Positions 27,404 to 64,000 of a stretch of 64,000 bases of DNA are shown here, one piece after another. The stretch's first letter is position 1, and each line of letters starts with the position of its first letter. The stretch comes from Pomacea canaliculata (taxonomy: Eukaryota; Mollusca; Gastropoda; Architaenioglossa; Ampullariidae): the NCBI RefSeq assembly GCF_003073045.1, contig NC_037590.1, positions 38,804,751-38,868,750 on the forward strand. The letters run 5' to 3'. The position numbers and the translations under genes are program-made. The notes under the pieces are model-generated. The model was not told the DNA's origin. It searched no databases and saw nothing but the letters and a program-made list of their open reading frames with translations.

Positions 27404-27478
27404 GCTGGACGAAGTTATGGTGACTACTAACCAATCTAGAGTTGAGTAGTCTAAAAAGCACGACTGGGATGGAAAATA

Positions 27479-30025: not shown

Positions 30026-30440
30026 TGTGTGTATTATAACTAAGAACCTGGGTTGTCGGTAACGGTTATCCCACACACTGTCACTGCTAATCAAATATCA
30101 AAAATGTAAATTATAATTAAAGACATCGTTGTATCTGGTGTAAACGTAACTTCATCTTTCAACAGAAGAGCGTCAGAATGTAAAAGGAAAGACTAGGAGG
30201 AATAAATGAACAGAAAAAGTCAACTTGTGCATGCTTCCTTTGCCAATGTGATTTACTTGTAAACAAAAGTTTCCTCAGGATGCATTTTGATAAAGAAAAC
30301 AGAAATTAAGACAAATTAAAATAAACAGTTTAAAACAGTGAGAGACTAACAATTTTTTCTTCTGTTTTAATATATTTTATTTTTATATCTGTATTTTGGA
30401 ATGACAACATGCCTTAAACGCTGTTCATCTTGCAGGGATA
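30026..30440 (+). repeat. Dispersed repeat R, copy 1
   Basis: Matches 46116-46620 in the same orientation: TGTGTATTA, AAAGACATCRTTGTATCTGG, TGTAAACG, TAAATGAACAGAAAA, TTTTTTCTTCT and, at the end, ATGACAACAT with TCTTGCAGGGAT. About 75-80% identical by eye. No coding capacity seen. Confidence 0.8.
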
Positions 30441-32789: not shown

Positions 32790-32929
32790 ATGTTGTTAAT
32801 TGTTGTAAGTTGTTCATAGTTGTTGATGATAGCTGTTGATGATAGTTGCTGATAGTTGTTGTTGATGGTTGATGATGATTGTTCTTGATGATTGATGATG
32901 AGGATGATGACGATGATGATGACTGTTGT

Positions 32930-32994
<65 letters not shown>

Positions 32995-33390
32995 GGTGAT
33001 GAGTGATGTTTGTTGTTGAGTGATGTTTGTTGTTGATGGTTGTTGTTGATGATGATGATGATTGTTGTTGAGTGATGTTTGTTGTTGATGCTGTTGATTA
33101 ATGGTGGTTGTGGTTGGTGCTTATTGTTGATGGTTCTTGATGATAAGTGTTAATGCTAATTGTTGTAAGTTGTTAATACTTAATGATGATGATGGTTGAT
33201 GTTGATGATTGTTGTTGATGCTTGATGATGATACTTGATGATGATGATTGCTGATGATTGCTGTTGATAATTGATGATGATTGTTGTTCATGAGTGGTGA
33301 TTATTACTGACGGTTGTTGGTAGTTATTGATATGTGTTGATGGATATTGATAGTTGTTGATCGTTGTTGATGACTGATGATAATTGTGGA
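32790..33390 (+). repeat. TTG/GAT-rich simple sequence with (GAT)n core
   Basis: Degenerate TGTTGATGATGA sequence surrounding a perfect (GAT)n tract at about 32931-32996. It leads directly into the heptamer array. Confidence 0.9.
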
Positions 33391-35449
33391 ACAGCGAACA
33401 GCGAACAGCCAACAGCCAACAGCCAACAGCCAACAGCGAACAGCGAACAGCGAACAGCGAACAGCGAACAGCCAACAGCCAACAGCCAACAGCCAACAGC
33501 CAACAGCGAACAGCGAACAGCGAACAGCGAACAGCGAACAGCGAACAGCGAACAGCGAACAGCCAACAGCCAACAGCCAACAGCCAACAGCCAACAGCCA
33601 ACAGCCAACAGCCAACAGCCAACAGCAACAGCCAACAGCCAACAGCCAACAGCCAACAGCCAACAGCAACAGCCAACAGCCAACAGCCAACAGCCAACAG
33701 CCAACACAGCCAACAGCCAACAGCCAACAGCCAACAGCCAACAGCCAACAGCCAACAGCCCAACAGCCAACAGCCAACAGCCAACAGCCAACAGCCAACA
33801 GCCAACAGCCAACAGCCAACAGCCACAGCCAACAGCCAACAGCCACAGCAACAGCCAACAGCCAGCAACAGCCAACAGCCAACAGCCAACAGCCAACAGC
33901 CAACAGCCAACAGCCAACAGCCAACAGCCAACAGCAACAGCCAACAGCCAACAGCCAACAGCCACAGCCAACAGCCAACAGCCAACAGCCAACAGCCAAC
34001 AGCCAACAGCCAACAGCCAACAGCCAACAGCAACAGCCAACAGCCAACAGCCAACAGCCAACAGCCAACAGCCAACAGCCAACAGCCAACAGCCAACAGC
34101 CAACAGCCACAGCCAACAGCCAAGCAGCAACAGCCAACAGCCACAGCCAACAGCCAACAGCCAACAGCAACAGCCAACAGCCAACAGCCAACAGCCAACA
34201 GCCAACAGCCAACAGCCAACAGCCAACAGCCAACAGCCAACAGCCAACAGCCAACAGCAACAGCCAACAGCCAACAGCCAACAGCCAACAGCCAACAGCC
34301 AACAGCCAACAGCCAACAGCCAACAGCCAACAGCCAACAGCCAACAGCCAACAGCCAACAGCCAACAGCCAACAGCCAACAGCCACAGCCAACAGCCAAC
34401 AGCCAACAGCCAACAGCCAACAGCCAACAGCCAACAGCCAACAGCCAACAGCCAACAGCCAACAGCCAACAGCCAACAGCCAACAGCCAACAGCCAACAG
34501 CCAACAGCCAACAGCCAACAGCCAACAGCCAACAGCCAACAGCCAACAGCCAACAGCCAACAGCCAACAGCCAACAGCCAACAGCCAACAGCCAACAGCC
34601 AACAGCCAACAGCCAACAGCCAACAGCCAACAGCCAACAGCCAACAGCCAACAGCCAACAGCCAACAGCCAACAGCCAACAGCCAACAGCCAACAGCCAA
34701 CAGCCAACAGCCAACAGCCAACAGCCAACAGCCAACAGCCAACAGCCAACAGCCAACAGCCAACAGCCAACAGCCAACAGCCAACAGCCAACAGCCAACA
34801 GCCAACAGCCAACAGCCAACAGCCAACAGCCAACAGCCAACAGCCAACAGCCAACAGCCAACAGCCAACAGCCAACAGCCAACAGCCAACAGCCAACAGC
34901 CAACAGCCAACAGCCAACAGCCAACAGCCAACAGCCAACAGCCAACAGCCAACAGCCAACAGCCAACAGCCAACAGCAACAGCCAACAGCCAACAGCCAA
35001 ACAGCCAACAGCCAACAGCCAACAGCCAACAGCCAACAGCCAACAGCCAACAGCCAACAGCCAACAGCCAACAGCCAACAGCCAACAGCCAACAGCAGGC
35101 CAACAGCCAACAGCCAACAGCCAACAGCCAACAGCAAGCCAGCCAACAGCCAACCAGCCCAACAGCAACAGCAACAGCCAACAGCCAACAGCCAACAGCC
35201 AACAGCAACAGCCAACAGCCACACAGCCAACAGCCAACAGCCAACAGCCACAGCCAACAGCCAACAGCCAACAGCCAACAGCCAACAGCCAACAGCCAAC
35301 AGCCAACAGCCAACAGCCAACAGCCAACAGCCAACAGCCAACAGCCAACAGCCAACAGCCAACAGCCAGCCAACAGCCAACAGCCAACAGCCAAGCAACG
35401 CCACAGCCAACAGCCAACAGCCAACAGCAACAGCCAACAGCCACAGCCA
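33391..35449 (+). repeat. Heptamer satellite (CCAACAG)n, ~290 copies
   Basis: A 7-bp unit repeated for 2.06 kb. The first 175 bp mix CGAACAG with CCAACAG; the rest is nearly pure CCAACAG with scattered single-base losses (CAACAG, CCACAG). Seven is 1 mod 3 and the unit has no stop, so all frames read the same heptapeptide (QQPTANS forward, LLAVGCW reverse). It is followed by the 61-bp array. Confidence 0.97.
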
Positions 35450-35454
35450 AACCC

Positions 35455-38400
35455 CCAACCCACCCACCCCGCCTTGCAGCCGACCTTGCCCAGTGGTGGT
35501 AAGCACTGTGCCACCACCCCCGCCTTGCAGCCGGGGTGGTGCTCTCTGCCCAGTGGTAAAGCTGGTGCCGACCCACCCACACCCGCCTTGCAGCGGGGTG
35601 GTGCTCTGCCCAGTAAGAGCTGGTGCCGACCACCCCCGCCTTGCAGCCGGGGTGGTGCTCCCCTGCCCAGTGAAAGCTGGTGCCGACCCACCCACCCGCC
35701 TTGCAGCCCAGGGTGGTGTTCAGTGGTAAGCTGGTGCCGACCCACCCACCCCGCCTTGCAGCGGGTGGTGCTCTGCCAGTGGTAAAGCTGGTGCGACCCA
35801 CCCACCCCGCCTTGCAGCCGGGGTGGTGCTCTGCCAGTGGTAAAGCTGGTGCCGACCCACCCACCCCGCCTTGCAGCCGGGGTGGTGCTCTGCCCAGTGG
35901 TAAAGCTGGTGCCGACCCACCACACCCGCCTTGCAGCCGGGGTGGTGCTCTTGCCCAGTGGTAAAGCTGGTGCCGACCCACCCACCCCGCCTTGCAGCCG
36001 GGGTGGTGCTCTGCCCAGTGGTAAAGCTGGTGCCGACCCACCCACCCCGCCTTGCAGCCGGGGTGGTGCTCCGCCCAGTGGTAAAGCTGGTGCCGACCCA
36101 CCCACCCCGCCTTGCAGCCGGGTGGTGCTCTTGCCCAGTGGTAAAGCTGGTGCCGACCCACCCACCCCGCCTTGCAGCCGGGGTGGTGCTCCTGCCCAGT
36201 GGTAAAGCTGGTGCCGACCCACCCACCCCGCCTTGCAGCCGGGGTGGTGCTCCTGCCCAGTGGTAAAGCTGGTGCCGACCCACCCACCCCGCCTTGCAGC
36301 CGGGGTGGTGCTCCTGCCCAGTGGTAAAGCTGGTGCCGACCCACCCACCCCGCCTTGCAGCCGGGGTGGTGCTCCTGCCCAGTGGTAAAGCTGGTGCCGA
36401 CCCACCCACCCGCCTTGCAGCCGGGGTGGTGCTCTGCCCAGTGGTAAAGCTGGTGCCGACCCACCCACCCCGCCTTGCAGCCGGGGTGGTGCTCTTGCCC
36501 AGTGGTAAAAGCTGGTGCCGACCCACCCACCCCGCCTTGCAGCCGGGGTGGTGCTCCTGCCCAGTGGTAAAGCTGGTGCCGACCCACCCACCCCGCCTTG
36601 CAGCCGGGGTGGTGCTCTGCCCAGTGGTAAAGCTGGTGCCGACCCACCCACCCCGCCTTGCAGCCGGGGTGGTGCTCTTGCCCAGTGGTAAAGCTGGTGC
36701 CGACCCACCCACCCCGCCTTGCAGCCGGGGTGGTGCTCTGCCCAGTGGTAAAGCTGGTGCCGACCCACCCACCCCGCCTTGCAGCGGGGTGGTGCTCTTG
36801 CCCAGTGGTAAAGCTGGTGCCGACCCACCCACCCCGCCTTGCAGCCGGGGTGGTGCTCTTGCCAGTGGTAAAGCTGGTGCCGACCCACCCACCCCGCCTT
36901 GCAGCCGGGGTGGTGCTCTTGCCCAGTGGTAAAGCTGGTGCCGACCCACCCACCCCGCCTTGCAGCCGGGGTGGTGCTCTTGCCCAGTGGTAAAGCTGGT
37001 GCCGACCCACCCACCCCGCCTTGCAGCCGGGGTGGTGCTCTTGCCCAGTGGTAAAGCTGGTGCCGACCCACCCACCCGCCTTGCAGCCGGGGTGGTGCTC
37101 TTGCCCAGTGGTAAAGCTGGTGCCGACCCACCCACCCCGCCTTGGCAGCCGGGGTGGTGCTCTTGCCCAGTGGTAAAAGCTGGTGCCGACCCACCCACCG
37201 CCTTGCAGCCGGGTGGTGCTCTTGCCCAGTGGTAAAGCTGGTGCCGACCCACCCACCCCGCCTTGCAGCCGGGGTGGTGCTCTTGCCCAGTGGTAAAGCT
37301 GGTGCCGACCCACCCACCCCGCTTGCAGCCGGGGTGGTGCTCCTGCCCAGTGGTAAAGCTGGTGCCGACCCACCCACCCCGCCTTGCAGCCGGGGTGGTG
37401 CTCTTGCCAGTGGTAAAGCTGGTGCCGACCCACCCACCCCGCCTTGCAGCCGGGGTGGTGCTCTTGCCCAGTGGTAAAGCTGGTGCCGACCCACCCACCC
37501 CGCCTTGCAGCCGGGGTGGTGCTCTTGCCCAGTGGTAAAGCTGGTGCCGACCCACCCACCCCGCCTTGCAGCCGGGGTGGTGCTCTTGCCCAGTGGTAAA
37601 GCTGGTGCCGACCCACCCACCCCGCCTTGCAGCCGGGGTGGTGCTCTTGCCCAGTGGTAAAGCTGGTGCGACCCACCCACCCCGCCTTGCAGCCGGGGTG
37701 GTGCTCTTGCCCAGTGGTAAAGCTGGTGCCGACCCACCCACCCCGCCTTGCAGCCGGGGTGGTGCTCTTGCCCAGTGGTAAAGCTGGTGCCGACCCACCC
37801 ACCCCGCCTTGCAGCCGGGGTGGTGCTCTTGCCCAGTGGTAAAGCTGGTGCCGACCCACCCACCCCGCCTTGCAGCCGGGGTGGTGCTCTTGCCCAGTGG
37901 TAAAGCTGGTGCCGACCCACCCACCCCGCCTTTGCAGCCGGGGTGGTGCTCTTGCCCAGTGGTAAAGCTGGTGCCGACCCACCCACCCCGCCTTGCAGCC
38001 GGGGTGGTGCTCTTGCCCAGTGGTAAAGCTGGTGCCGACCCACCCACCCCGCCTTGCAGCCGGGGTGGTGCTCTTGCCAGTGTAAAGCTGGTGCCGACCC
38101 ACCCACCCCGCCTTGCAGCCGGGGTGGTGCTCCTGCCCAGTGGTAAAGCTGGTGCCGACCCACCCACCCCGCCTTGCAGCCGGGGTGGTGCTCCTGCCCA
38201 GTGGTAAAGCTGGTGCCGACCCACCCACCCCGCCTTGCAGCCGGGGTGGTGCTCCTGCCCAGTGGTAAAGCTGGTGCCGACCCACCCACCCCGCCTTGCA
38301 GCCGGGGTGGTGCTCCTGCCCAGTGGTAAAGCTGGTGCCGACCCACCCACCCCGCCTTGCAGCCGGGGTGGTGCTCCTGCCCAGTGGTAAAGCTGGTGCC

Positions 38401-41400
38401 GACCCACCCACCCCGCCTTGCAGCCGGGGTGGTGCTCCTGCCCAGTGGTAAAGCTGGTGCCGACCCACCCACCCCGCCTTGCAGCCGGGGTGGTGCTCCT
38501 GCCCAGTGGTAAAGCTGGTGCCGACCCACCCACCCCGCCTTGCAGCCGGGGTGGTGCTCCTGCCCAGTGGTAAAGCTGGTGCCGACCCACCCACCCCGCC
38601 TTGCAGCCGGGGTGGTGCTCCTGCCCAGTGGTAAAGCTGGTGCCGACCCACCCACCCCGCCTTGCAGCCGGGGTGGTGCTCCTGCCCAGTGGTAAAGCTG
38701 GTGCCGACCCACCCACCCCGCCTTGCAGCCGGGGTGGTGCTCCTGCCCAGTGGTAAAGCTGGTGCGACCCACCCACCCCGCCTTGCAGCCGGGGTGGTGC
38801 TCCTGCCCAGTGGTAAAGCTGGTGCCGACCCACCCACCCCGCCTTGCAGCCGGGGTGGTGCTCCTGCCCAGTGGTAAAGCTGGTGCCGACCCACCCACCC
38901 CGCCTTGCAGCCGGGGTGGTGCTCCTGCCCAGTGGTAAAGCTGGTGCCGACACCCACCCCGCCTTGCAGCCGGGGTGGTGCTCTTGCCCAGTGGTAAAGC
39001 TGGTGCCGACCACCCACCCGCCTTGCAGCCGGGGTGGTGCTCTTGCCCAGTGGTAAAGCTGGTGCCGACCCACCCACCCCGCCTTGCAGCCGGGGTGGTG
39101 CTCTTGCCCAGTGGTAAAGCTGGTGCCGACCCACCCACCCGCCTTGCAGCCGGGGTGGTGCTCTTGCCCAGTGGTAAAGCTGGTGCCGACCCACCCACCC
39201 CGCCTTGCAGCCGGGGTGGTGCTCTTGCCCAGTGGTAAAGCTGGTGCCGACCCACCCACCCCGCCTTGCAGCCGGGGTGGTGCTCTTGCCCAGTGGTAAA
39301 GCTGGTGCCGACCCACCCACCCCGCCTTGCAGCCGGGGTGGTGCTTCTTGCCCAGTGGTAAAGCTGGTGCCGACCCACCCACCCCGCCTTGCAGCCGGGG
39401 TGGTGCTCTTGCCCAGTGGTAAAGCTGGTGCCGACCCACCCACCCCGCCTTGCAGCCGGGTGGTGCTCTTGCCCAGTGGTAAAGCTGGTGCCGACCCACC
39501 CACCCCGCCTTGCAGCCGGGGTGGTGCTCTTGCCCAGTGGTAAAGCTGGTGCCGACCCACCCACCCCGCCTTGCAGCCGGGGTGGTGCTCTTGCCCAGTG
39601 GTAAAAGCTGGTGCCGACCCACCCACCCGCCTTGCAGCCGGGGTGGTGCTCTTGCCCAGTGGTAAAGCTGGTGCCGACCCACCCACCCCGCCTTGCAGCC
39701 GGGTGGTGCTCTTGCCAGTGGTAAAGCTGGTGCCGACCCACCCACCCCGCCTTGCAGCCGGGTGGTGCTCTTGCCCAGTGGTAAAGCTGGTGCCGACCCA
39801 CCCACCCCGCCTTGCAGCCGGGGGTGGTGCTCTTGCCCAGTGGTAAAGCTGGTGCCGACCCACCCACCCCGCCTTGCAGCCGGGGTGGTGCTCTGCCCAG
39901 TGGTAAAGCTGGTGCCGACCCACCCACCCCGCCTTGCAGCCGGGGTGGTGCTCTTGCCCAGTGGTAAAGCTGGTGCCGACCCACCCACCCCGCCTTGCAG
40001 CCGGGTGGTGCTCTTGCCCAGTGGTAAAGCTGGTGCCGACCCACCACCCCGCCTTGCAGCCGGGGTGGTGCTCTTGCCCAGTGGTAAAGCTGGTGCCGAC
40101 CCACCCACCCCGCCTTGCAGCCGGGGTGGTGCTCGTTGCCAGTGGTAAAGCTGGTGCCGACCCACCCACCGCCTTGCAGCCGGGTGGTGCTCTTGCCCAG
40201 TGGTAAAGCTGGTGCCGACCCACCCACCCCGCCTTGCAGCCGGGGGTGGTGCTCCTCCAGTGGTAAAGCTGGTGCCGACCCACCCACCCCGCCTTGCAGC
40301 CGGGGTGGTGCTCTGCCCAGTGGTAAAGCTGGTGCCGACCCACCCACCCCGCCTTGCAGCCGGGGTGGTGCTCCTGCCCAGTGGTAAAGCTGGTGCCGAC
40401 CCACCCACCCCGCCTTGCAGCCGGGGTGGTGCTCCTGCCCAGTGGTAAAGCTGGTGCCGACCCACCCACCCCGCCTTGCAGCCGGGGTGGTGCTCCTGCC
40501 CAGTGGTAAAGCTGGTGCCGACCCACCCACCCCGCCTTGCAGCCGGGGTGGTGCTCCTGCCCAGTGGTAAAGCTGGTGCCGACCCACCCACCCCGCCTTG
40601 CAGCCGGGGTGGTGCTCTTGCCCAGTGGTAAAGCTGGTGCCGACCCACCCACCCGCCTTGCAGCCGGGGTGGTGCTCTTGCCCAGTGGTAAAGCTGGTGC
40701 CGACCCACCCACCCCGCCTTGCAGCCAGGGTGGTGCTCTTGCCCAGTGGTAAGCTGGTGCCGACCCACCCACCCCGCCTTGCAGCCGGGGTGGTGCTCCT
40801 GCCCTGGTAAAGCTGGTGCCGACCCACCCACCCCGCCTTGCAGCCGGGTGGTGCTCTTGCCCCAGTGGTAAAGCTGGTGCCGACCCACCCACCCCGCCTT
40901 GCAGCCGGGGTGGTGCTCTTGCCCAGTGGTAAAGCTGGTGCCGACCCACCCACCCCGCCTTGCAGCGGGTGGTGCTCTTGCCCAGTGGTAAAGCTGGTGC
41001 GACCCACCCACCCCGCCTTGCAGCCGGGGTGGTGCTCTTGCCCAGTGGTAAAGCTGGTGCCGACCCACCCACCCCGCCTTGCAGCCGGGGTGGTGCTCGC
41101 CCAGTGGTAAAGCTGGTGCCGACCCACCCACCCCGCCTTGCAGCCGGGGTGGTGCTCCTGCCCAGTGGTAAAGCTGGTGCCGACCCACCCACCCCGCCTT
41201 GCAGCCGGGGTGGTGCTCCTGCCCCAGTGGTAAAGCTGGTGCCGACCCACCCACCCCGCCTTGCAGCCAGGTAGTGGTAAAGCTGGTGCCGACCCACCCA
41301 CCCCGCCTTGCAGCCGGGGTGGTGCTCCTTGCCAGTGTAAGCTGGTGCCGACCCACCACCCCGCCTTGCAGCCGGCGGTGGTGCTCTTGCCCAGTGGTAA

Positions 41401-44400
41401 AGCTGGTGCCGACCCACCCCCCGCCTTGCAGCCGGGTGGTGGCCCAGTGGTAAAGCTGGTGCCGACCCACCCACCCGCCTTGCAGCCGGGGTGGTGCTCC
41501 TGCCCAGTGGTAAAGCTGGTGCCGACCCACCACCCGCCTTGCAGCCGGGTGGTGCACTGGTGCCGACCCACCCACCCCGCCTTGCAGCCGGCCCAGGCTG
41601 GTGCCGTTGCAAAGTGGTAAAGCTGGTGCCGACCCACCACCCCGCCTGCAGCCGGGGTGGTGCTCCTGCCAGTGGTAAAGCTGGTGCCGACCCACCCACC
41701 CGCCTTGCAGCCGGGGTGGTTCTTGCCCACTGTGCCGACCGCCTTGCAGCCGGAGCTGGTGCCGACCCACCCACCCCGCCTTGCAGCCCTCTTGCCCAGT
41801 GGTAAAGCTGGTGCCGACCCACCCACCCCGCCTTGCAGCCGGGGTGGTGCTCCTGCCCAGTGGTAAAGCTGGTGCCGACCCACCCACCCCGCCTTGCAGC
41901 CGGGGTGGTGCTCCTGCCCAGTGGTTAAAGCTGGTGCCGACCCACCCACCGCCTTGCAGCCGGGGTGGTGCTCTTGCCAGTGGTAAAGCTGGTGCCGACC
42001 CACCCACCCCGCCTTGCAGCCGGGGTGGTGCTCTTGCCAGTGGTTAAAGCTGGTGCCGACCCACCCACCCCGCCTTGCAGCCGGGTGGTGCTCTTGCCCA
42101 GTGGTAAAGCTGTGCCGACCCACCCACCCCGCCTTGCAGCCGGGGTGGTGCTCTTGCCCAGTGGTAAAGCTGGTGCCGACCCACCCACCCCGCCTTGCAG
42201 CCGGGGTGGTGCTCCTGCCCAGTGGTAAAGCTGGTGCCGACCCACCCACCCCGCCTTGCAGCCGGGGTGGTGCTCCTGCCCAGTGGTAAAGCTGGTGCCG
42301 ACCCACCCACCCCGCCTTGCAGCCGGGGTGGTGCTCCTGCCCAGTGGTAAAGCTGGTGCCGACCCACCCACCCCGCCTTGCAGCCGGGGTGGTGCTCCTG
42401 CCCAGTGGTAAAGCTGGTGCCGACCCACCCACCCCGCCTTGCAGCCGGGGTGGTGCTCCTGCCCAGTGGTAAAGCTGGTGCCGACCCACCCACCCCGCCT
42501 TGCAGCCGGGGTGGTGCTCCCCAGTGGTAAAGCTGGTGCCGACCCACCCACCCCGCCTTGCAGCCGGGGTGGTGCTCTTGCCCAGTGGTAAAGCTGGTGC
42601 CGACCCACCCACCCCGCCTTGCAGCCGGTGGTGCTCTTGCCCAGTGGTAAAGCTGGTGCCGACCACCACCCCGCCTTGCAGCGGGGTGGTGCTCCTGCCC
42701 AGTGGTAAAGCTGGTGCCGACCCACCCACCCCGCCTTGCAGCCGGGGTGGTGCTCCTGCCCAGTGGTAAAGCTGGTGCCGACCCACCCACCCCGCCTTGC
42801 AGCCGGGGTGGTGCTCTTGCCCAGTGGTAAAGCTGGTGCCGACCCACCCACCCCGCCTTGCAGCCGGGGTGGTGCTCCTGCCCAGTGGTAAAGCTGGTGC
42901 CGACCCACCCACCCCGCCTTGCAGCCGGGGTGGTGCTCCTGCCCAGTGGTAAAGCTGGTGCCGACCACCCACCCGCCTTGCAGCCGGGGTGGTGCTCTTG
43001 CCCAGTGGTAAGCTGGTGCCGACCACCCACCCCGCCTTGCAGCCGGGGTGGTGCTCTTGCCCAGTGGTAAAGCTGGTGCGACCACCCACCCCGCCTTGCA
43101 GCCGGGGTGGTGCTCTTGCCCAGTGGTAAAGCTGGTGCCGACCCACCCACCCCGCCTTGCAGCCGGGGTGGTGCTCTTGCCCAGTGGTAAAGCTGGTGCC
43201 GACCACCCACCCCGCCTTGCAGCCGGGGTGGTGCTCTTGCCCAGTGGTAAAGCTGGTGCCGACCCACCCACCCCGCCTTGCAGCCGGGGTGGTGCTCTTG
43301 CCCAGTGGTAAAGCTGGTGCCGACCACCCACCCGCCTTGCAGCCGGGGTGGTGCTCTTGCCCAGTGGTAAAGCTGGTGCCGACCCACCCACCCCGCCTTG
43401 CAGCCGGGGTGGTGCTCTTGCCCAGTGGTAAAGCTGGTGCCGACCCACCCACCCCGCCTTTGCAGCCGGGGTGGTGCTCTTGCCCAGTGGTAAAGCTGGT
43501 GCCGACCACCCACCCCGCCTTGCAGCCGGGGGTGGTGCTCTTGCCCAGTGGTAAAGCTGGTGCCGACCCACCCACCCCGCCTTGCAGCCGGGGTGGTGCT
43601 CTTGCCCAGTGGTAAAGCTGGTGCCGACCCACCCACCCGCCTTGCAGCCGGGGTGGTGCTCTTGCCCAGTGGTAAAGCTGGTGCCGACCACCCACCCCGC
43701 CTTGCAGCCGGGGTGGTGCTCTTGCCCAGTGGTAAAGCTGGTGCCGACCCACCCACCCCGCCTTGCAGCCGGGGTGGTGCTCTTGCCCAGTGGTAAAGCT
43801 GGTGCCGACCCACCCACCCCGCCTTGCAGCCGGGGTGGTGCTCTTGCCAGTGGTAAAGCTGGTGCCGACCCACCCACCCCGCCTTGCAGCCGGGGTGGTG
43901 CTCTTGCCCAGTGGTAAAGCTGGTGCCGACCCACCCACCCCGCCTTGCAGCCGGGGTGGTGCTCTTGCCCAGTGGTAAAGCTGGTGCCGACCCACCCACC
44001 CCGCCTTGCAGCCGGGGTGGTGCTCTTGCCCAGTGGTAAAGCTGGTGCCGACCCACCCACCCCGCCTTGCAGCCGGGGTGGTGCTCTTGCCCAGTGGTAA
44101 AGCTGGTGCCGACCCACCCACCCCGCCTTGCAGCCGGGGTGGTGCTCTTGCCCAGTGGTAAAGCTGGTGCCGACCCACCCACCCCGCCTTGCAGCCGGGG
44201 TGGTGCTCTTGCCCAGTGGTAAAGCTGGTGCCGACCCACCCACCCCGCCTTTGCAGCCGGGGTGGTGCTCTTGCCAGTGGTAAAGCTGGTGCCGACCCAC
44301 CCACCCCGCCTTGCAGCCGGGGTGGTGCTCTTGCCCAGTGGTAAAGCTGGTGCCGACCCACCCACCCCGCCTTGCAGCCGGGGTGGTGCTCTTGCCCAGT

Positions 44401-46095
44401 GGTAAAGCTGGTGCCGACCCACCCACCCGCCTTGCAGCCGGGGTGGTGCTCTTGCCCAGTGGTAAAGCTGGTGCCGACCCACCCACCCCGCCTTGCAGCC
44501 GGGGTGGTGCTCTTGCCCAGTGGTAAAGCTGGTGCCGACCCACCCACCCCGCCTTGCAGCCGGGGTGGTGCTCTTGCCCAGTGGTAAGCTGGTGCCGACC
44601 CACCCACCCGCCTTGCAGCCGGGGTGGTGCTCTTGCCCAGTGGTAAAGCTGGTGCCGACCCACCCACCCCGCCTTGCAGCCGGGGTGGTGCTCTTGCCCA
44701 GTGGTAAAGCTGGTGCCGACCCACCCACCCCGCCTTTGCAGCCGGGGTGGTGCTCTTGCCCAGTGGTAAAGCTGGTGCCGACCCACCCACCCCGCCTTGC
44801 AGCCGGGGTGGTGCTCTTGCCCAGTGGTAAAGCTGGTGCCGACCCACCCACCCCGCCTTGCAGCCGGGGTGGTGCTCTTGCCCAGTGGTAAAGCTGGTGC
44901 CGACCCACCCACCCCGCCTTGCAGCCGGGGTGGTGCTCTTGCCCCAGTGGTAAAGCTGGTGCCGACCCACCCACCCCGCCTTGCAGCCGGGGTGGTGCTC
45001 TTGCCCAGTGGTAAAGCTGGTGCCGACCCACCCACCCCGCCTTGCAGCCGGGGTGGTGCTTCTTGCCCAGTGGTAAAGCTGGTGCGACCCACCCACCCCC
45101 CGCCTTGCAGCCGGGGTGGTGCTCTTGCCCAGTGGTAAAGCTGGTGCCGACCCACCCACCCCGCCTTGCAGCCGGGTGGTGCTCTTGCCAGTGGTAAAGC
45201 TGGTGCCGACCCACCCACCCCGCCTTGCAGCCGGGGTGGTGCTCTTGCCCAGTGGTAAAGCTGGTGCCGACCCACCCACCCCGCCTTGCAGCCGGGGTGG
45301 TGCTCTTGCCCAGTGGTAAAGCTGGTGCGACCCACCCACCCCGCCTTGCAGCCGGGGTGGTGCTCTTGCCCAGTGGTAAAGCTGGTGCCGACCCACCCAC
45401 CCGCCTTGCAGCCGGGGTGGTGCTCTTGCCCAGTGGTAAAGCTGGTGCCGACCCACCCACCCCGCCTTGCAGCCCGGGGTGGTGCTCTTGCCAGTGGTAA
45501 AGCTGGTGCCGACCCACCCACCCGCTTGCAGCCGGGTGGTGCTCTTGCCCAGTGGTAAAGCTGGTGCCGACCCACCCACCCCGCCTTGCAGCCGGGGTGG
45601 TGCTCTTGCCCAGTGGTAAAGCTGGTGCCGACCCACCCACCCTGCCTTGCAGCCGGGGTGGTGCTCTTGCCCAGTGGTAAAGCTGGTGCCGACCCACCCA
45701 CCCCGCCTTGCAGCCGGGGTGGTGCTCTGCCCAGTGGTAAAGCTGGTGCCGACCCACCCACCCGCCTTTGCAGCCGGGGGTGGTGCTCTTGCCCAGTGGT
45801 AAAGCTGGTGCCGACCCACCCACCCGCCTTGCAGCCGGGGTGGTGCTCTTGCCCAGTGGTAAAGCTGGTGCCGACCCACCCACCGCCTTGCAGCCGGGGT
45901 GGTGCTCTTTGCCCAGTGGTAAGCTGGTGCGACCCACCCACCCCGCCTTGCAGCGGGGTGGTGCTCTTTGCCCAGCCGAACCCCCCCGCTTGCAGCGCGG
46001 TGCTTTGCAGAGTGGTAAAGCTGGTTTGCAGCATGCTGATTCATGCAGAAAGCTAGGCCGACCCACCACCCGCCTGCAGCCGGGTGCCATTGCAG
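35455..46095 (+). repeat. 61-bp GC-rich minisatellite, type A, ~174 copies
   Basis: Unit marks in order: GTGGTAAAGCTGGTGCCGAC, CCACCCACCCCGCC, TTGCAG, CCGGGGTGGTGCTC, YTGCCCA. Period 61 bp. Common variants are CTCCTG, CTCTTG and CTCTG in one position and 3-4 C or G in the homopolymers. The edges (35.46-36.0 and after 45.9 kb) and an internal stretch at about 41.26-41.80 kb are more degenerate. Each unit holds an 8-bp perfect inverted repeat CCACCCCG / CGGGGTGG with a 9-nt loop. The minus strand of the unit has no stop trinucleotide, which creates the spurious giant open frames here. Confidence 0.97.
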
Positions 46096-46115
46096 CGGTG
46101 TGGCGTGTGCGGCGG

Positions 46116-46620
46116 TTGTGTATTACAACTGAAAACCAGTGTTGGCGGAGAACGGTCTTCCCTTGCACAATCATTGGCTAGTGATCGATTAGATATCGAA
46201 AATAGAAAAAAATTATGAATAAAGACATCATTGTATCTGGTGTAAACGCTACTTCTTCATTCAGTAGAAAAGCTTCAGAATTAAAACGAAACGACTAGAA
46301 GACTAAATGAACAGAAAAGTCATCTCGTCCATTCTTTAACTTTCCTGTGTGATATACTTGTGTAGTAAAAGTTACATCCTGATGCATCTTGTTAAAGATA
46401 ACAAAACAGACACATTAAAAATAATTAATTTAAAAGTAAGAGACTTACAATTTTTTTCTTCTTTTTATAGATTTAATTGTTTACATCTGTATCGAGAAAA
46501 CCTTTGATTGCAGACAACATAACTACCGAAGTCTAGATAGAACTGTGAAGACCATAAACCAAAGACAGCCTGTATTTTCAATGACAACATACTTTAAACG
46601 CTTTTTATCTTGCAGGGATG
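46116..46620 (+). repeat. Dispersed repeat R, copy 2, abutting the 61-bp array
   Basis: Match to 30026-30440 with about 85 extra bases near 46490-46575. Its left edge follows the last recognisable 61-bp unit within about 20 bp. Confidence 0.8.
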
Positions 46621-47443
46621 TTATCAAGTATTCTATAATGAAACTACAATGTATTGCACAGTTTAATAGTTTTTATCACACTGTCTCGTGCGGCCCGCAG
46701 CACCTGGACTACAGTGATTTACACTGTACAACTCCTGTGTGTATTGTTATCGTCACGATGAAGAATCTTCGTCGTACAGGCTCGCCCACTGTCAGGTAGA
46801 ACTCCCTGAGTAGAGGAGATGGAGAGGTGGCACTAGAAAGCTCGGCACAGCAATCAAGTGGTCAGATTGCTTAAAGTTCTATAAAACAAGACCTTCCGCC
46901 ATACACTCCATTACGAATAATGAACCGTTACAGTCCGCTAGTCTTTATCACGTGACAGAGACGCTAGGTGTGGTCTGTAGTAGGGCAAGGGGTAAAAATC
47001 TGCTTAGTGTTGAAAGTAGGAATTTTCACACGCTGGTACGTGTTAATTTGTCATTAAAAAGTTTCTTTTAAAAGCGATTGCATTGTCGCCCTGACTTCCG
47101 TATGACTGCTAACTGTTTTTGGCTGCATGTGTGCTGGGGGAATGTCCGTCCGAGGCAGAGCACGACAAACATGTAATTATGGTAATATGGCCTGCCTGAA
47201 CGTTGTGTGTTTAAATTTCGTTAAAAAGAGACTGAGCTTAACCGTGCAATATTTTTGTTTTATAAATAGTTCACTTTTGAGAAAGGAGAAAGGGGGGCGT
47301 AGTATTCTGTCTGTAGCCAAAAAGGTGCAGGAAACTGATCAGATCACAAAGAATTCAACAATTATTAACACCATGGTAGGGTGCTTAGACTTACCTGATT
47401 TGGAGCACGCCGGGTCGGTTAGAGAACTGACTGTAGTTGCGGC

Positions 47444-47479
<36 letters not shown>

Positions 47480-48459
47480 CCCCCCCCCCCAAAATTTTTT
47501 GTTTTTTTTGTTAAAAAAAAAAAAAAAAAAGGGGGGGGGGTTTTTTTTTTATTTTTGGGGGGGGATAAAAAAAAATTTTTTTTTTGGGGGGTTATTTTTT
47601 TTTTTTTGCTACAAGTATCTCAGAGAGAGAAGCGGCCACATTTGACAATTTGGTCAACGCTCGGTTGGATCGCACTGAAAGATGTTCCATCCTGGGAAAA
47701 ATGTTTCAGAAAAGCCTTCAATTATTTGGGTCAAAACTCCCTTGCCTATAGAGATAACGATAATGAGTTATTTGTACGAGATTAATTATGCGGCAAAGTT
47801 CGCTTCCTCAGACAAGATTTCGGATTGGAATCCCAGAGAGACTAACATCGATGCTCAATGGTTGAATTTTTTTTTTTTTTTAATTTTAGAAGAATTTTGT
47901 GGCCCTATGGACAAATACAAAGATTGTTGAGTTTTTTCTTGTGTCTAACCAGGAACTAACGGCTGTTACTGAAAGGATATTTCTGCAATGAACGCATGTG
48001 GATCCATGAAAAGACACAGTTAAAGGTGGAACACTGAAAAAGGACTTTTAATTGTGAAGTGCAATTTTGATCAGCGAACGATAGCAAAGACGATGAGGTG
48101 CCGGACCATAGTTCGCATGGTCATTTGTAGCAAGACCTCACCACGCACGTCCGCAAAGTTAGCTGAGCGGCGAGATAAGGTAGGAATATTTCTATTTGAA
48201 ATTTTAAAAGCCGTTTTCTTTTTTTTTTTTCCTTTCAAATGGATACTGTATCGGCCGTGGACAGATCTGCCGTTGAAAGCATCACCAACTCGGCCAGTCA
48301 GATTTTTCGGCTTTCATTGTCGGTGACGACACCATCATCGGCACGCGTCCCGCTTTCGCTTCGAAACGTCTGGTCACCTTAATTTAAGAAATCCGTTAGT
48401 TGAATAATAATGAGATGTAGAACTGTAAAAACAAAAGTTCGTAGCAGGGTTAATCAGTA
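46621..48459. other. Non-repetitive stretch between the two arrays, no gene recognised
   Basis: Short open frames only. A low-quality homopolymer block occupies 47445-47607. An open stretch at about 48054-48180 ends in a donor-like AAGGTAGGAA but has no recognisable domain. Confidence 0.5.
47445..47607. other. Homopolymer block, suspected assembly artefact
   Basis: Runs of 33 A, 13 C, then T, A, G, T, G, A and T runs with almost no other sequence. Natural DNA rarely looks like this; mis-called or mis-polished homopolymers are more likely. Confidence 0.7.
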
Positions 48460-48559
48460 NNNNNNNNNNNNNNNNNNNNNNNNNNNNNNNNNNNNNNNNN
48501 NNNNNNNNNNNNNNNNNNNNNNNNNNNNNNNNNNNNNNNNNNNNNNNNNNNNNNNNNNN
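48460..48559. other. Assembly gap (100 N)
   Basis: Exactly 100 N, the conventional placeholder for a gap of unknown size. True distance between flanks is unknown. Confidence 0.99.
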
Positions 48560-48960
48560 AGCCAAGACCAAGAGCCAAGAGCCAAGACCAAGAGCCAAGA
48601 GCCAAGAGCAAGAGCCAAGAGCAAGAGCCAAGAGCAAGAAGCCAAGAGCCAAGAGCCAAGAGCCAGAGCCAAGAGCAAGAGCCAAGAGCCAAGAGCCAAA
48701 GAGCCAAGAGCCAAGAGCCAAGAGCCAAGAGCCAAGAGCCAAGAGCCAAAGAGCCAAAGAGCAGAGCCAAGAGCCAAGAGCCAAGAGCCAAGAGCAAGAG
48801 CCAAAGAGGCCAAGAGCCCAAGAGCCAAGAGCCAAAAGCCCAAGAGCAAGAGCCAGAGCCCAAAGAAGCCAAGAGTCCAAGAGCCAAGAGCCAAGAGCCA
48901 GGCCAAGAGCCAAGAGCCAAGAGCCAAAGAGCCAAGAGCCAAAGAGCCAAGAGCAAGAGC
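48560..48960 (+). repeat. Heptamer satellite (CCAAGAG)n, degenerate
   Basis: A 7-bp unit AGCCAAG (same as CCAAGAG rotated) with many one-base gains and losses, starting at the gap edge, so its left end is missing. It differs from the CCAACAG heptamer at 33.4 kb by one base. It passes straight into the 62-bp array. Confidence 0.93.
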
Positions 48961-51900
48961 CTTAGCAGCGCGGGGTGGTGCTCCTGCCCAGTAAAGAAAG
49001 CTGGTGCCGACCCCCCACCCCGCCTTGCAAGCCGGGGTGGTGCTCCTGCCCAAGTAAAGAAAGCTGGTGCCAGAAGTGACCCACCCACCCCGCCTTGCAG
49101 CCGGGGGTGGTGCTCCTGCCCAGTAAAGAAGCTGGTGCCGACCCAACCCACCCCGCCTTGCAGCCGGGGTGGTGCTCCTGCCCAGTAAAGAAAGCCTGGT
49201 GCCTGTTTGACCCCACTCACCCCCGCCTTTGCCAGCCGGGGTGGTGCTCCCTGCCCCAAGATAAAGAAAGCTGGTCCAGGTGGATCCCACCCACCCGTCC
49301 TTGCAGGCCGGGGTGGGGTGCCTCCTGCCCAGTAAAGAAAGCTGGTGCCGACCCCCACCTCCGCCTGCAAGCCGGGGTGGTGCTCTTGCCAGTAAAGATA
49401 AGCTTGGTGCCTGACCCACCACCCGCCTTGCAGCCGGGGTGGTGCTCCTGCCCAGTTAAAGACAGCTGGTGCCGACCCCACCACCCCGCCTTGCAGCGGG
49501 GTGGTGCTCCTGCCCAGTAAAGAAGCTGGTGCCGACCCATCCCACTCCCGCTATGCAGCCGGGGTGGTGCTCCTTGGCCGGCAGTAAGAAAGCTAAGGTG
49601 CACGACCCAACCCACCCCGCCTTGCAGCCGGGTGGTGCTCCTGCCCAGGATAAAAGGAAAGCTGGTGCCGACCCACCCACCCACCGGCTTGCAGTCCGGG
49701 GGTGGTTGTCTGCACATTCCGACCCAGTAAGAAAGCTGGTGCCTATTTTGGGTGACCGCGACCATTCACCGTGGTGATACCAGCCTTTGCAGCCCGGAGG
49801 CCTGGTGCTCCTGCCCAGTAAAGAAGCTGGTGGCCGACCCAACCCACCCTCCGCCGTGGCAGCCAGGGTGGTGCTACTCTGCCCCCAGTAAAGAAAGCTG
49901 GTGCCGACCCACCCACCTCCTAGGCCTTGGCATGCCGGGGTGGGTGCTTCCTGCCAGTAAAGAAAGCTGGTGCCGACGCCACCCACCCCGCCTTGCAGCC
50001 GGGGTGGTGACTACCTAGCACCAGTATAAGAATAGCCTGGTAGCCGACCCACCCCACCCCGCCTTGCATCGCCGGGGTGGTGCTCCTCCCTCTAAAAAAG
50101 CTGGTGCCGACCACACACGCCCGCCTTGCCAGGCCGGGGTTGGTGCAATCCTGCCCACAGTAAAGAAAGCTGGATGCCCGGACCCACCCACCCCAGCCTG
50201 CAGCCGGGGCTGGTGCTCCTGCCCAGTAAAGAAAGCTGGTGCAGACCCCACCCACCCGCCTTGCAGCCGGGGTGGTGCTCCTGCCCAGTAAAGAAAGCTG
50301 GTGCCCTGACCCACCCACCCGCCTTGCGCCGGGGATGGTGCTCCTGCCCCAGTAAAAGAAAGCTGGTGCGACCCAACCCACCACCGCCTTGCACCGGGGT
50401 GGTGCTCTGCCCAGTAAAGAAGCTGGTGCCGACCCACCCCACTCCCGCCTTGCAGCCGGGGTGGTGCTCCTCCCAGTAAAGAAAGCTGGTGCCGACCCAC
50501 CGCACCCCCGCCTTGCAGCCCGGGGTGGTGCCCTGGCCAGTATAAGAAGCTGGTGCCGACCCCACCCACCCCCGCCTTCAGCCGGGGTGCTCCTGCCAGT
50601 AAAGAAAGCTGGTGCCGACCCACCCACCCCGCCTTGCAGCCGGGTGGTGCTCCGCCCAGTTAAAGAAAGCTGGTGCCACCCACCCACCCCGCCTTGAGCC
50701 GGTGGTGCTCCTGCCCAGTAAAGAAAGCTGGTGCGACCCACCCACCCCGCATTGCGACGGGGTGGTGCTCCTGCCCAGTAAAGAAAGCTGGTGCCGACCC
50801 CCCACCCGCCTTGCAGCCGGGGTGGTGCTCACTGCCAGTAAAGAAAGCGGTGCCCAGACGCCCATCCAACCCCGCCTTGCAGCCGGGGTGGTGCTCCTGC
50901 CCATAAAGAAAGCTGGTGCCGACCCACCACCCCCGCCTTTTGCAGCCGGGTGGTGCTCCTGCCCAGTAAAGTAAAGCTGGTGCCGACCCACCCACCCCGC
51001 CTTGCAGCCGGGTGGGTGGCTCCTGCCATAAGAAAGCCCTGGTGCGACCCACCCACCCCGCCTTGCAGCCGGGGTGGTGCTCCTGCCAGTAAAGAAGCTG
51101 GTTGCCGACCCAACCCACCCCGCCTTGCACCGGGGTGGTGCCCTGCCCACAGTAAAGAAAGCTGGTGCCGACCCACCCACCCGCCTTGCAGCCGGGGGTG
51201 CTCCTGCCCAGTAAAGAAAGCTGGTGCCGACCACCCACCCCGCCTGCAAGCCGGGGTGGTGCTCCTGCCCAGTAAAGAAAGCTGGTGCCGACCCACCCAC
51301 CGCCGCCGGCTTGCAGCCGGGGTGGTGCTCCGCCCAGTAAAGAAGCTGGTGCCGACGCCACCCACCCCGCCTGCTAGCCGGGGTGGTGCTCCTGCCAGTA
51401 AACGAAAGCTGGTGCCGACCACCCACCCCGCCTTGCAGCCGGGGTTGGTGCTCCCTGCCCAGTAAAGAAAGCTGTGCCGACCGCCACCCACCCCGCCTTT
51501 GCAGGCGGGGTGGTGCTCCTGCCCAGTAAAGAAAGCTGGTGCCGACCCACCCACCCCGCTTGCAAGCCGGGGTGGTGCTCCCTGCCCAGTAAAGAAAGCT
51601 GGTGCCGACGCCACCACCCCGCCTTGCACCGGGGTGGTGCTCCTGCCCAGTAAAAGAAAGCTGGTGCCGACCACCGCACCCACCACCGCCCTTTGCAGCC
51701 GGGGTGGTGCTCCTGCCAGTAAAGAAGCTGGTGCCGACCCACCCAACCCCGCCTTGGCAGCCGTGGTGCTCCTGCCCAGTAAAAAGAAAGCTGGTGCCGA
51801 CCCACCCACCCGCCTGCAGGCCGGGGTGGTGCTCCTGCCCAGTAAAGAAAAGCTGGTGCGACCCACCCAACCCGCGCCTGCAGCCGGGTGGTGCTCCTGC

Positions 51901-62500: not shown

Positions 62501-64000
62501 CTGCCCAGTAAGAAAGCTGGTGCCGACCCACCCACACCCGCCTTGCAGCCGGGTGGTGCTCCTGCCCAGTAAGAAAGCTGGTGCCGACCCACCCACACCC
62601 GCCTTGCAGCCGGGGTGGTGCTCCTGCCCAGTAAGAAAGCTGGTGCCGACCCACCCACACCCGCCTTGCAGCCGGGGTGGTGCTCCTGCCCAGTAAGAAA
62701 GCTGGTGCCGACCCACCCACACCCGCCTTGCAGCCGGGGTGGTGCTCCTGCCCAGTAAGAAAGCTGGTGCCGACCCACCCACACCCGCCTTGCAGCCGGG
62801 TGGTGCTCCTGCCCAGTAAGAAAGCTGGTGCCGACCCACCCACACCCGCCTTGCAGCCGGGGTGGTGCTCCTGCCCAGTAAGAAAGCTGGTGCCGACCCA
62901 CCCACACCCGCCTTGCAGCCGGGTGGTGCTCCTGCCCAGTAAGAAAGCTGGTGCCGACCCACCCACACCCGCCTTGCAGCCGGGGTGGTGCTCCTGCCCA
63001 GTAAGAAAGCTGGTGCCGACCCACCCACACCCGCCTTGCAGCCGGGGTGGTGCTCCTGCCCAGTAAGAAAGCTGGTGCCGACCCACCCACACCCGCCTTG
63101 CAGCCGGGGTGGTGCTCCTGCCCAGTAAGAAAGCTGGTGCCGACCCACCCACACCCGCCTTGCAGCCGGGGTGGTGCTCCTGCCCAGTAAGAAAGCTGGT
63201 GCCGACCCACCCACACCCGCCTTGCAGCCGGGTGGTGCTCCTGCCCAGTAAGAAAGCTGGTGCCGACCCACCCACACCCGCCTTGCAGCCGGGTGGTGCT
63301 CCTGCCCAGTAAGAAAGCTGGTGCCGACCCACCCACACCCGCCTTGCAGCCGGGGTGGTGCTCCTGCCCAGTAAGAAAGCTGGTGCCGACCCACCCACAC
63401 CCGCCTTGCAGCCGGGGTGGTGCTCCTGCCCAGTAAGAAAGCTGGTGCCGACCCACCCACACCCGCCTTGCAGCCGGGGTGGTGCTCCTGCCCAGTAAGA
63501 AAAGCTGGTGCCGACCCACCCACACCCGCCTTGCAGCCGGTGGTGCTCCTGCCCAGTAAGAAAGCTGGTGCCGACCCACCCACACCCGCCTTGCAGCCGG
63601 GGTGGTGCTCCTGCCCAGTAAGAAAGCTGGTGCCGACCCACCCACACCCGCCTTGCAGCCGGGGTGGTGCTCCTGCCCAGTAAGAAAGCTGGTGCCGACC
63701 CACCCACACCCGCCTTGCAGCCGGGGTGGTGCTCCTGCCCAGTAAGAAAGCTGGTGCCGACCCACCCACACCCGCCTTGCAGCCGGGGTGGTGCTCCTGC
63801 CCAGTAAGAAAGCTGGTGCCGACCCACCCACACCCGCCTTGCAGCCGGGGTGGTGCTCCTGCCCAGTAAGAAAGCTGGTGCCGACCCACCCACACCCGCC
63901 TTGCAGCCGGGTGGTGCTCCTGCCCAGTAAGAAAGCTGGTGCCGACCCACCCACACCCGCCTTGCAGCCGGGGTGGTGCTCCTGCCCAGTAAGAAAGCTG
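56541..64000 (+). repeat. 62-bp minisatellite, type C, ~120 copies, running off the window
   Basis: Unit marked by CAGTAAGAAAGCTGG and CCACCCACACCCGCC, with TTGCAGCCGGGGTGGTGCTC as in type B. Period exactly 62 bp. Degenerate at 56.5-58.8 kb (including a scrambled stretch at 58.2-58.8 kb), then nearly identical copies to the edge, varying mostly in GCCGGGG versus GCCGGG. A few units keep the type B GTAAAG. The right end lies outside the window. Confidence 0.96.

What the first reader, a model, noticed from the sequence alone, without database searches (positions are those of the whole stretch)
33391..64000. A composite satellite, heptamer array then 61/62-mer array, occurs twice in the same orientation
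Seen: (CCAACAG)n to a 61-bp array at 33.39-46.1 kb, and (CCAAGAG)n to a 62-bp array at 48.56-64+ kb. The heptamers differ by one base and the long units share most of their sequence. Two unrelated tandem repeats joined in the same order twice is hard to explain by chance. Either the composite was duplicated and the copies then diverged, or heptamer and long unit spread together as parts of one element, or the assembly laid two haplotypes or loci end to end across the gap. I know of no described satellite with this structure, but could not search.
Basis: partly seen in the sequence, partly recalled or inferred. Interest (0 to 1): 0.75.

Follow-up and report, generated by a model that had tools for sequence, protein, structure and literature searches.

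The report
Jumping element carrying ordered satellite arrays
In what appears to be the golden apple snail genome, two unrelated tandem repeats sit side by side because both are cargo inside a large dispersed mobile element that has spread to many chromosomes, which shows how long satellite DNA can be carried to and restarted at new sites.

Summary
In detail: heptamer 33390-35450 then 61-mer to about 46030, and heptamer 48560-48961 then 62-mer to 64211, in the same orientation. The assembly matches published Pomacea canaliculata. Heptamer-to-long-unit junctions occur at eight loci on four chromosomes, all in one order (reverse order, one phase tested: 0). The arrays lie inside a dispersed element: 15 of 40 scored 5'-module loci have a 3' module in the same order and orientation, 6-35 kb away, none otherwise; arrays were directly evidenced at seven of these. 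Seven of the 15 carry a hAT-like right end that occurs 483 times in the genome; the ten such sites I sampled are 217-235-bp MITEs with 7-8 bp target duplications. Two young copies (10.7 and 13.1 kb) have 15-bp inverted repeats at both ends and short flank duplications (6 bp; 6 of 7). A hAT transposase fragment lies beside the right end of one copy. Best reading: a non-autonomous element carrying an ordered chain of arrays, its young subfamily moved by a hAT-type transposase, each array re-homogenised after insertion. How the other copies moved is unresolved. The haplotype/misassembly reading is not supported.

The parts
28775..30023 (+). left extension of the element present in the window copy and in other copies; start approximate
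   Evidence: many matches begin at query 275-316 (window about 28775-28815); C and D copies match from 29150 and 28923
30024..30439 (+). 5' module start (DR5); 30023/30024 is the exact 5' end in four copies (TATGTGTGTATTACAAC)
   Evidence: (four matches start at query 1524/1525)
30440..32815 (+). 5' module body, conserved between dispersed copies (30440-31700: 81-92%, long matches)
31711..31822 (+). 14-mer-like array (TCATCTRCC type) inside the body; also called in copies A and B, not in C or D
32816..33387 (+). irregular TGATGATG/GTTGATG array directly before the heptamer, same place in copies A, B, C and D
33390..35450 (+). left heptamer array; first part alternates blocks of CGAACAG and CCAACAG, then CCAACAG only
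35461..46030 (+). left 61-mer array; unit types CTCTTG and CTCCTG in blocks; degenerate last units to about 46100
46103..48381 (+). 3' module: DR3 (46117-46619, 75% identical to DR5), middle part, region homologous to the hAT fragment of copy A (about 47750-48160, not itself scanned), right end
48368..48381 (+). right terminal inverted repeat GTCTGGTCACCTTA; no left counterpart found in the window copy
48382..48459 (.). 78 bp beyond the right end, shared with copy A (C4:28.85 Mb), up to the contig edge
48460..48559 (.). 100-N scaffold gap
48560..48961 (+). right heptamer array (CCAAGAG), starts at contig edge
48962..64000 (+). right 62-mer array (continues to 64211), two unit types, noisy to about 58.77 kb

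Best explanation
The two composites are two copies of one dispersed, non-autonomous mobile element that carries an ordered chain of tandem arrays as internal cargo: a TGATGATG-like array, a heptamer (largely a decamer in copy B), then a 61/62-mer, between a 5' and a 3' module (a 14-mer-like array also lies in the 5' module of L, A and B). A young subfamily moves by cut-and-paste through terminal inverted repeats (TAAGGTGACCAGACG ... CGTCTGGTCACCTTA), with a hAT-type transposase supplied in trans. After insertion each array expands, contracts and homogenises on its own, so copies differ in unit variant and size while order and orientation stay fixed. Shown: dispersal, fixed order, shared exact ends, inverted repeats and short flank duplications at two copies, copy-specific unit variants. 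Inferred: that a hAT transposase does the moving, and that unequal exchange or slippage homogenises the arrays. Not resolved: how the copies without the hAT-like right end moved (8 of the 15 paired loci). The window's left copy has only the right inverted repeat; the right copy is cut by the contig edge.
For: Junctions of heptamer to long unit at eight loci on C1, C4, C5, C10 in one order; reverse order 0, one phase tested. 15 of 40 body loci have a 3' module within 40 kb on the same strand in the same order, 0 in the other order, 0 on the opposite strand, 0.07 expected under uniform placement. Arrays were directly evidenced at 7 of the 15: L, A, B, C4:29.53, C5:3.21 and C10:20.61 (read or sampled) and C1:41.55 (matched string). 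Four copies start at window 30023/30024; eight copies besides A end at or within 6 bp of one base, with mostly unrelated flanks. Units C10:20607533-20618219 and C4:29525152-29538269 carry both inverted repeats; flanks give CAACCC/CAACCC and TTAAGAC/TTCAGAC. Samples of 251 bases show the triplet array and 61-mer at C10, heptamer and 61-mer at C4. The right end occurs 483 times; ten of ten sampled MITEs have 7-8 bp duplications against 0 of 90 swapped pairs with 5 or more. PF05699 Dimer_Tnp_hAT E 2.6e-5, above its cut-off, beside the right end of copy A. Five copies are 96-99% identical to A over the last 0.8 kb. CGAACAG/CCAACAG block order recurs at L, A, C and, noisily, D.
Against: Only 7 of the 15 paired loci show the hAT-like right part; of 40 3'-module loci 9 reach the end of the query (window 47440), 14 stop at about 47370-47377 and 17 elsewhere. 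So hAT-mediated movement is evidenced for a subfamily, not for the family, which sought that part, scored 40 of 2409 candidates. Copies A and C5:3.21 lack the left inverted repeat; their 6-bp flank matches (TTTGAA, GTCAGG) are 1-3 bp off the 5' end and may be chance. C5:3.22 and C1:41.57 share about 200 bp of right flank, and L and A share 78 bp. One further match, C4:25.25, runs 13 bp past the common end. The joined empty site of C5:3.21 was not found. Duplications of 7 as well as 8 bp are not clean hAT. The hAT domain was seen as a fragment in one copy. Copy B lacks the CGAACAG blocks. The heptamer of the C10:20.61 unit was not sampled.
Confidence: 0.72

Rival explanations
1. The composite spread mainly by segmental duplication of one locus, not by transposition.
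For: L and A share 78 bp beyond the right end, and C5:3.22 and C1:41.57 share about 200 bp; 8 of 15 paired loci show no hAT-like right part; U5 snRNA-like sequence lies near both the window copy and the copy about 380 kb away on the same chromosome.
Against: Body copies on 12 and 3' modules on 13 scaffolds with exact common ends in several copies and mostly unrelated flanks; inverted repeats plus short duplications at two copies.
Confidence: 0.1
2. The family as a whole, or its older part, was spread by another carrier, for instance a rolling-circle (Helitron/Helentron, HINE-type) element as in the Pacific oyster, and a hAT-like end was acquired later.
For: Same layout as Cg_HINE: left flank with microsatellite, then array(s), then right flank, constant orientation, sometimes two arrays in a row (PMC7492417, passages); 14 of 40 3'-module loci stop at another common point, about window 47370-47377; four copies share an exact 5' end that has no inverted repeat.
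Against: Both-end inverted repeats and short duplications at two copies; the hairpin near the right end is matched by 21 of 200 shuffles; PF14214 search gave no match, but its controls also gave none, so that is uninformative. Ends of the copies without the hAT-like part were not read.
Confidence: 0.12
3. An LTR-type element: DR5 and DR3 are diverged long terminal repeats.
For: DR5 (30028-30439) and DR3 (46117-46619) are direct repeats around the arrays.
Against: Within a copy they are 75% (L) and 78% (A) identical over about 380 bp (86% over only 119 bp in B), while between copies DR3 is 83-91% and DR5 about 92-96% (L with A and C, windows); DR3 lies 2 kb inside the right end.
Confidence: 0.02
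4. Assembly artefact: the right composite is the other haplotype or a misplaced copy of the left one.
For: 100-N gap at 48460, contig-end noise to about 58.77 kb; heterozygous genome assembled with smartdenovo and scaffolded with LACHESIS (PMC6129957, passages).
Against: The 3' flanks of the two arrays differ and match different loci; the composite recurs at many other loci. Adjacency itself is untested.
Confidence: 0.04

Closest known systems
Cg_HINE non-autonomous Helentrons of Crassostrea gigas (PMC7492417; passages including abstract seen)
   Same: Dispersed mobile element with a microsatellite in the left flank and internal satellite-like arrays in constant orientation; some carry two arrays in consecutive order.
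   Different: Here two copies have inverted repeats with short flank duplications and a hAT transposase fragment lies beside one right end; the arrays are kb-scale (modules 6-35 kb apart) and three to four different arrays follow one another; the oyster arrays are mostly short (longest 29 monomers in that sample).
Tetris / DAIBAM of Drosophila virilis (PMC4079207; abstract and passages seen)
   Same: Non-autonomous TIR element that shares only its terminal portion with a MITE and carries internal tandem repeats that grow into kb-size arrays.
   Different: Tetris repeats lie inside its inverted repeats, it has 8-10 bp duplications and its authors suggest Mutator; here the arrays are not part of the inverted repeats, are several kinds in fixed order, and the young subfamily looks hAT-like.
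miDNA4 (Tc1/mariner MITE with satellite, Xenopus; described in PMC12628747, passages, and PMC9659126, passages)
   Same: TIR element with an internal tandem repeat whose copy number varies; arrays proposed to be captured and then expanded.
   Different: One satellite, a MITE-sized carrier, different superfamily.
DNA/hAT-Charlie burst in Pomacea canaliculata (PMC6129957; passages including abstract)
   Same: Reported recent hAT expansion in the genome that this assembly matches; the MITE/composite end here is a recent hAT-like family.
   Different: The passages I saw do not describe satellite cargo; identity of the two families is not tested.

Membership tests
hAT superfamily (TIR DNA transposon) | short terminal inverted repeats at both ends | tested here: met
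   for two composites and the MITEs only: at least 15 bp TAAGGTGACCAGACG / CGTCTGGTCACCTTA at both ends of the C10 and C4 units and of ten of ten sampled MITEs; left repeat absent at A, C5:3.21 and the window copy; copies without the hAT-like right end not examined
hAT superfamily (TIR DNA transposon) | 8-bp target site duplication (recalled) | tested here: inconclusive
   MITEs: 8 bp in 4 of 10, 7 bp in 6 of 10; composites 6 bp exact and 6 of 7
hAT superfamily (TIR DNA transposon) | transposase with C-terminal hAT dimerisation region | tested here: inconclusive
   fragment with PF05699 above cut-off in copy A; no catalytic core sought genome-wide; the homologous region of the window copy was not scanned
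Helitron / Helentron (HINE) | no inverted repeats at the very ends and no target duplication | tested here: not met
   searches show both at two copies; the older copies were not tested
Helitron / Helentron (HINE) | RepHel protein of an autonomous partner in the genome | tested here: inconclusive
   PF14214: 0 matches, but controls also 0
LTR retrotransposon | two terminal direct repeats identical at insertion, hence no more diverged within than between copies | tested here: not met
   DR5/DR3 75-78% within L and A; DR3 83-91% and DR5 92-96% between copies
satellite DNA | long homogenised head-to-tail arrays | tested here: met
   units nearly free of substitutions in the clean parts of both arrays
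satellite DNA | location in heterochromatin/centromere | not testable with these tools
   no cytology or chromatin data

The most novel reading that the evidence does not exclude
A transposon acts as a vehicle for a whole ordered satellite 'cassette': three to four unrelated arrays, with an internal block order (CGAACAG then CCAACAG, repeated) that is shared by diverged lineages of the element, are re-seeded at each insertion and each re-homogenised into private variants. The array chain would then be a maintained part of the element, for instance a template that starts long arrays at new sites or shields the element, and not a passenger. (Lowered from 0.3 on recheck: copy B lacks the block order and the 14-mer-like array was called in three of five copies.)
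Probability: 0.25. Interest if true: 0.75.

Novelty: new variant of a known kind. Interest (0 to 1): 0.55.

Why it matters
How satellite arrays arise at new places, and how one array becomes uniform, are long-standing questions. Here a dispersed element family with a young subfamily gives many insertions of the same starting arrays at known sites on most chromosomes, with sizes that differ (6-35 kb between modules) and unit variants that differ between the copies read. That is a natural replicate experiment for the rate and unit of array homogenisation, and it explains a pairing of repeats that looks impossible by chance. It also warns that contig breaks and noisy stretches in this assembly fall inside such elements.

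Tried and rejected
Systematic long-read miscalling as the cause of the heptamer and unit differences: considered because telomeric repeats are often miscalled in nanopore data (PMC9414165, search listing with start of abstract). Set aside because the matching published assembly used PacBio reads with Illumina correction and because unit differences recur as distinct sets at other loci; they follow flank relationships only partly (L with A, R with C; but C10:20.61 and C5:3.21 differ in units while 98% alike to A at the right end).

Ten ORFs of 113-194 aa from the window gave nothing in Pfam above cut-off. A scan of viral contigs for the long-unit core found nothing. The opposite-orientation control (one of two arrangements, one phase) gave one hit whose matched text is itself a long-unit variant, not heptamer. 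The PF14214 search was uninformative. I first read the right terminus as a Helitron-type end with a hairpin; the fold was weak and the inverted repeats at two copies went against it.

Limits of the counts: searches scored only 40 of 261, 188, 515 and 2409 candidates, so copy numbers are lower bounds. One search used all 53 matches and the first 40 of the 66 rows (by position the other 26 are pieces of the same loci). Pairwise BLAST dropped array matches and pieces under 80 bp; one search masked the arrays. The ten sampled right ends are eight plus-strand sites on C1 and a facing pair on C2, picked from the first 100 of 483 listed. Of the eight junction loci, L, A, B, C and D were read, C4:29.53 was sampled on both sides, and C10:23.70 and C1:41.55 were seen only as matched strings; the C10:23.70 string holds just one AGCCAA. 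At the 8 paired loci other than the seven named, arrays are inferred from spacing alone. Literature searches for this structure; none listed a description of it in Pomacea (titles and abstract starts seen).
Full report
WHAT IS IN THE WINDOW. Tandem Repeats Finder and direct reading of the junction regions confirm both composites: heptamer 33390-35450 then 61-mer to about 46030, and, after a 100-N gap at 48460-48559, heptamer 48560-48961 then 62-mer to 64211, just past the window. A cyclic alignment of the units shows that most of the left array and the last part of the right array are almost free of substitutions, apart from indels, mostly at G or C runs, and the block-wise CTCTTG/CTCCTG difference in the left array. 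The right array is insertion-rich from its start to about 58.77 kb, as a low-coverage contig end would be. Unit types differ between the arrays at a few fixed sites, and the right array changes type near 56.5 kb, inside its noisy part.

WHERE IT COMES FROM. The window is C1:38804751-38868750 of an assembly of 440,159,624 bases in 24 contigs, C1 being 45,418,568 long. The published Pomacea canaliculata assembly is 440.1 Mb with the longest of 14 scaffolds 45.4 Mb, from PacBio reads averaging 10.1 kb, smartdenovo, Pilon and LACHESIS (PMC6129957, passages). I take this as the species; it is an inference.

THE JUNCTION IS NOT LOCAL. The pattern AGCCAA, 0-30 bases, CCGCCTTGCAGCC has 7 hits at five loci on C1, C4 and C5. 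A second phase of the long unit gives 7 hits at six loci, adding C1:41.55, C4:29.53 and C10:23.70. Both have 0 hits in the read-backwards control. The reverse order (long unit, then heptamer; one phase) has 0 hits. One opposite-orientation arrangement has one hit, whose text is a long-unit variant. That makes eight loci, all in one order; the C10:23.70 one rests on a matched string alone.

THE WHOLE NEIGHBOURHOOD RECURS. Four of these loci (A, B, C, D) were read over 30-40 kb. Each shows a TGATGATG-like array, then a heptamer (mostly a decamer CCAACAACAG in B, C4:9.21), then the 61/62-mer (D is noisy and interleaved). A 14-mer-like array also precedes it in A and B, as in the window, but was not called in C or D. 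Non-array sequence is shared too: window 30024-32808 with A (C4:28.85) at 86%, and window 46093-47440 with A at 91%. Genome-wide, the 3' module gives 53 matches with 40 of 261 candidates scored, and the 5' body 66 matches with 40 of 188 scored. Pairing them by position, 15 loci have both modules on the same strand in the same order, 6.2 to 35.1 kb apart, against 0.07 expected under uniform placement; 0 pairs are in the other order and 0 on opposite strands. Arrays were directly evidenced at seven of the 15 (L, A, B, C4:29.53, C5:3.21, C10:20.61, C1:41.55); at the other eight they are inferred from the spacing.

INTERNAL ORDER. The heptamer array does not start uniformly. At L it begins with alternating blocks of CGAACAG and CCAACAG and then turns to CCAACAG only; A and C show the same alternation, and D a CGAAGAG block before noisy CCAAGAG. 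B has no such block, and R is cut by the contig edge. The samples of C4:29.53 and C5:3.21 also hold CGAACAG. Unit types differ between copies: CTCTTG with GTGGTAAAG in L, A and C4:29.53; CTCCATCCC in B; GTGGGAAAG and GTAAGAAAG with CACACCC in C; GCTAGCCCGACC at C10:20.61; a distinct set at C5:3.21. R resembles C in part of its units and in the flank after the array (88% over 277 bp).

THE ENDS. Four copies begin at the same base, window 30023/30024. On the other side eight copies besides A end at or within 6 bp of the same base; one further match runs 13 bp past it and the window copy 78 bp past it to its contig edge. Nine right ends read from other loci gave ...CGTCTGGTCACCTTA (one with a single change) followed by different flanks, except that C5:3.22 and C1:41.57 share a flank; the window's own right end at 48381 shares 78 bp of flank with A. 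The 21-bp end occurs 483 times in the genome. Ten sampled sites are MITEs of 217-235 bp with TAAGGTGACCAGACG at the other end and duplications of 7 or 8 bp; left and right flanks taken from different copies never match by 5 or more (0 of 90).

TWO COMPLETE UNITS. At C10:20607533-20618219 (10,687 bp) and C4:29525152-29538269 (13,118 bp) a MITE-like left end with the inverted repeat abuts the 5' module and the right inverted repeat closes the unit. Flanks read CAACCC and CAACCC at C10, in a CCCTAA-like context, and TTAAGAC and TTCAGAC at C4. Samples of 251 bases inside the units show the start of the triplet array and the 61-mer at C10, and the heptamer and 61-mer at C4. These two copies look like single cut-and-paste units with the satellites inside. 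A and C5:3.21 begin at the 5' module without the left inverted repeat; their 6-bp flank matches are suggestive only.

WHAT MOVES IT. An open frame beside the right end of A matches the hAT C-terminal dimerisation domain PF05699 (E 2.6e-5, 24.4 bits, cut-off 21.4). [quoted passage not shown] A hAT-type transposase in trans is therefore the likeliest engine for the young subfamily, five of whose copies are 96-99% identical to A over the last 0.8 kb. This is inference: the mixed 7/8-bp duplications are not textbook hAT (recalled), and no complete transposase was sought.

WHAT SPEAKS AGAINST A SIMPLE hAT STORY. Only 7 of the 15 paired loci show the hAT-like right part. Of the 40 3'-module loci, 9 reach window 47440, 14 stop at about 47370-47377 and 17 stop elsewhere. 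The composite is thus probably older than its present hAT-like right end, or the right part was lost or missed in other copies (one search scored 40 of 2409 candidates). DR5 and DR3 are direct repeats of 75-78% identity within L and A, but DR3 is 83-91% and DR5 about 92-96% between copies. This suggests that two related older elements flank the arrays. That part of the history is not resolved.

HOW THE ARRAYS BEHAVE. The order and orientation are inherited with the element; length and unit variant differ from copy to copy. The likely process is unequal exchange or replication slippage inside each inserted array (inference).

THE GAP. The left contig stops 78 bp past the right end of the left element, and the right contig starts inside the heptamer of another copy. 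The flanks after the two arrays differ, so I read them as two copies and not two alleles. Whether they are neighbours depends on Hi-C scaffolding.

COMPARISON. Satellite-carrying transposons are known: oyster HINE Helentrons, some with two arrays in a row (PMC7492417, passages); Tetris, which shares its ends with a MITE (PMC4079207, abstract and passages); Xenopus miDNA4 (via PMC12628747, passages). This case works like them but differs in superfamily signs, in kb-scale arrays, and in carrying an ordered chain of three to four unlike arrays. I call it a new variant of a known kind. Searches listed no description of it in Pomacea.

Noticed in passing
window 25580-25699 (+) and 28074-28193 (-): Two U5 snRNA genes in inverted orientation; similar sequence recurs in a 1.2-kb tandem duplication near copy C (C1:38.45 Mb), so U5-like sequence lies near two copies of the element.
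   Followed up: partly
window 24325-24976 and 26799-27607: Diverged direct duplication holding tRNA-Lys(TTT) at 24832-24904 and a degenerate copy at 27481-27540.
   Followed up: no
window 47445-47610: Smeared homopolymer runs (A, C, T, G blocks) that interrupt the 3' module and are absent from copy A; looks like a sequencing or polishing artefact.
   Followed up: partly
C10:23702361 to about 23742018: A junction hit, a further 61-mer hit and a 3' module on one strand suggest another composite of roughly 40 kb.
   Followed up: no
C5:9.685-9.712 Mb (copy D): Very noisy copy with CCAAGAG heptamer and 61-mer text interleaved, and its own 100-N gap; hard to tell assembly error from real mixing.
   Followed up: partly
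C1:41567789-41568069: A second right end (last 82 bp of the element) lies about 280 bp after the first; about 200 bp between them also follow the C5:3.22 copy.
   Followed up: partly
genome-wide: A MITE family (ten sampled copies of 217-235 bp, 7-8 bp target duplications) shares about 80 terminal bp with the composite element; its 21-bp end occurs 483 times, composites included.
   Followed up: partly
about window 47370-47377 and its matches: Fourteen of 40 3'-module loci stop at this point: a second, common right boundary of the family whose neighbouring sequence I did not read.
   Followed up: no
window 14770-14914 and 18127-18282: Inverted repeat arms 85-93% alike, 3.2-3.3 kb apart; weaker matches near copies C and D suggest another dispersed repeat.
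   Followed up: no
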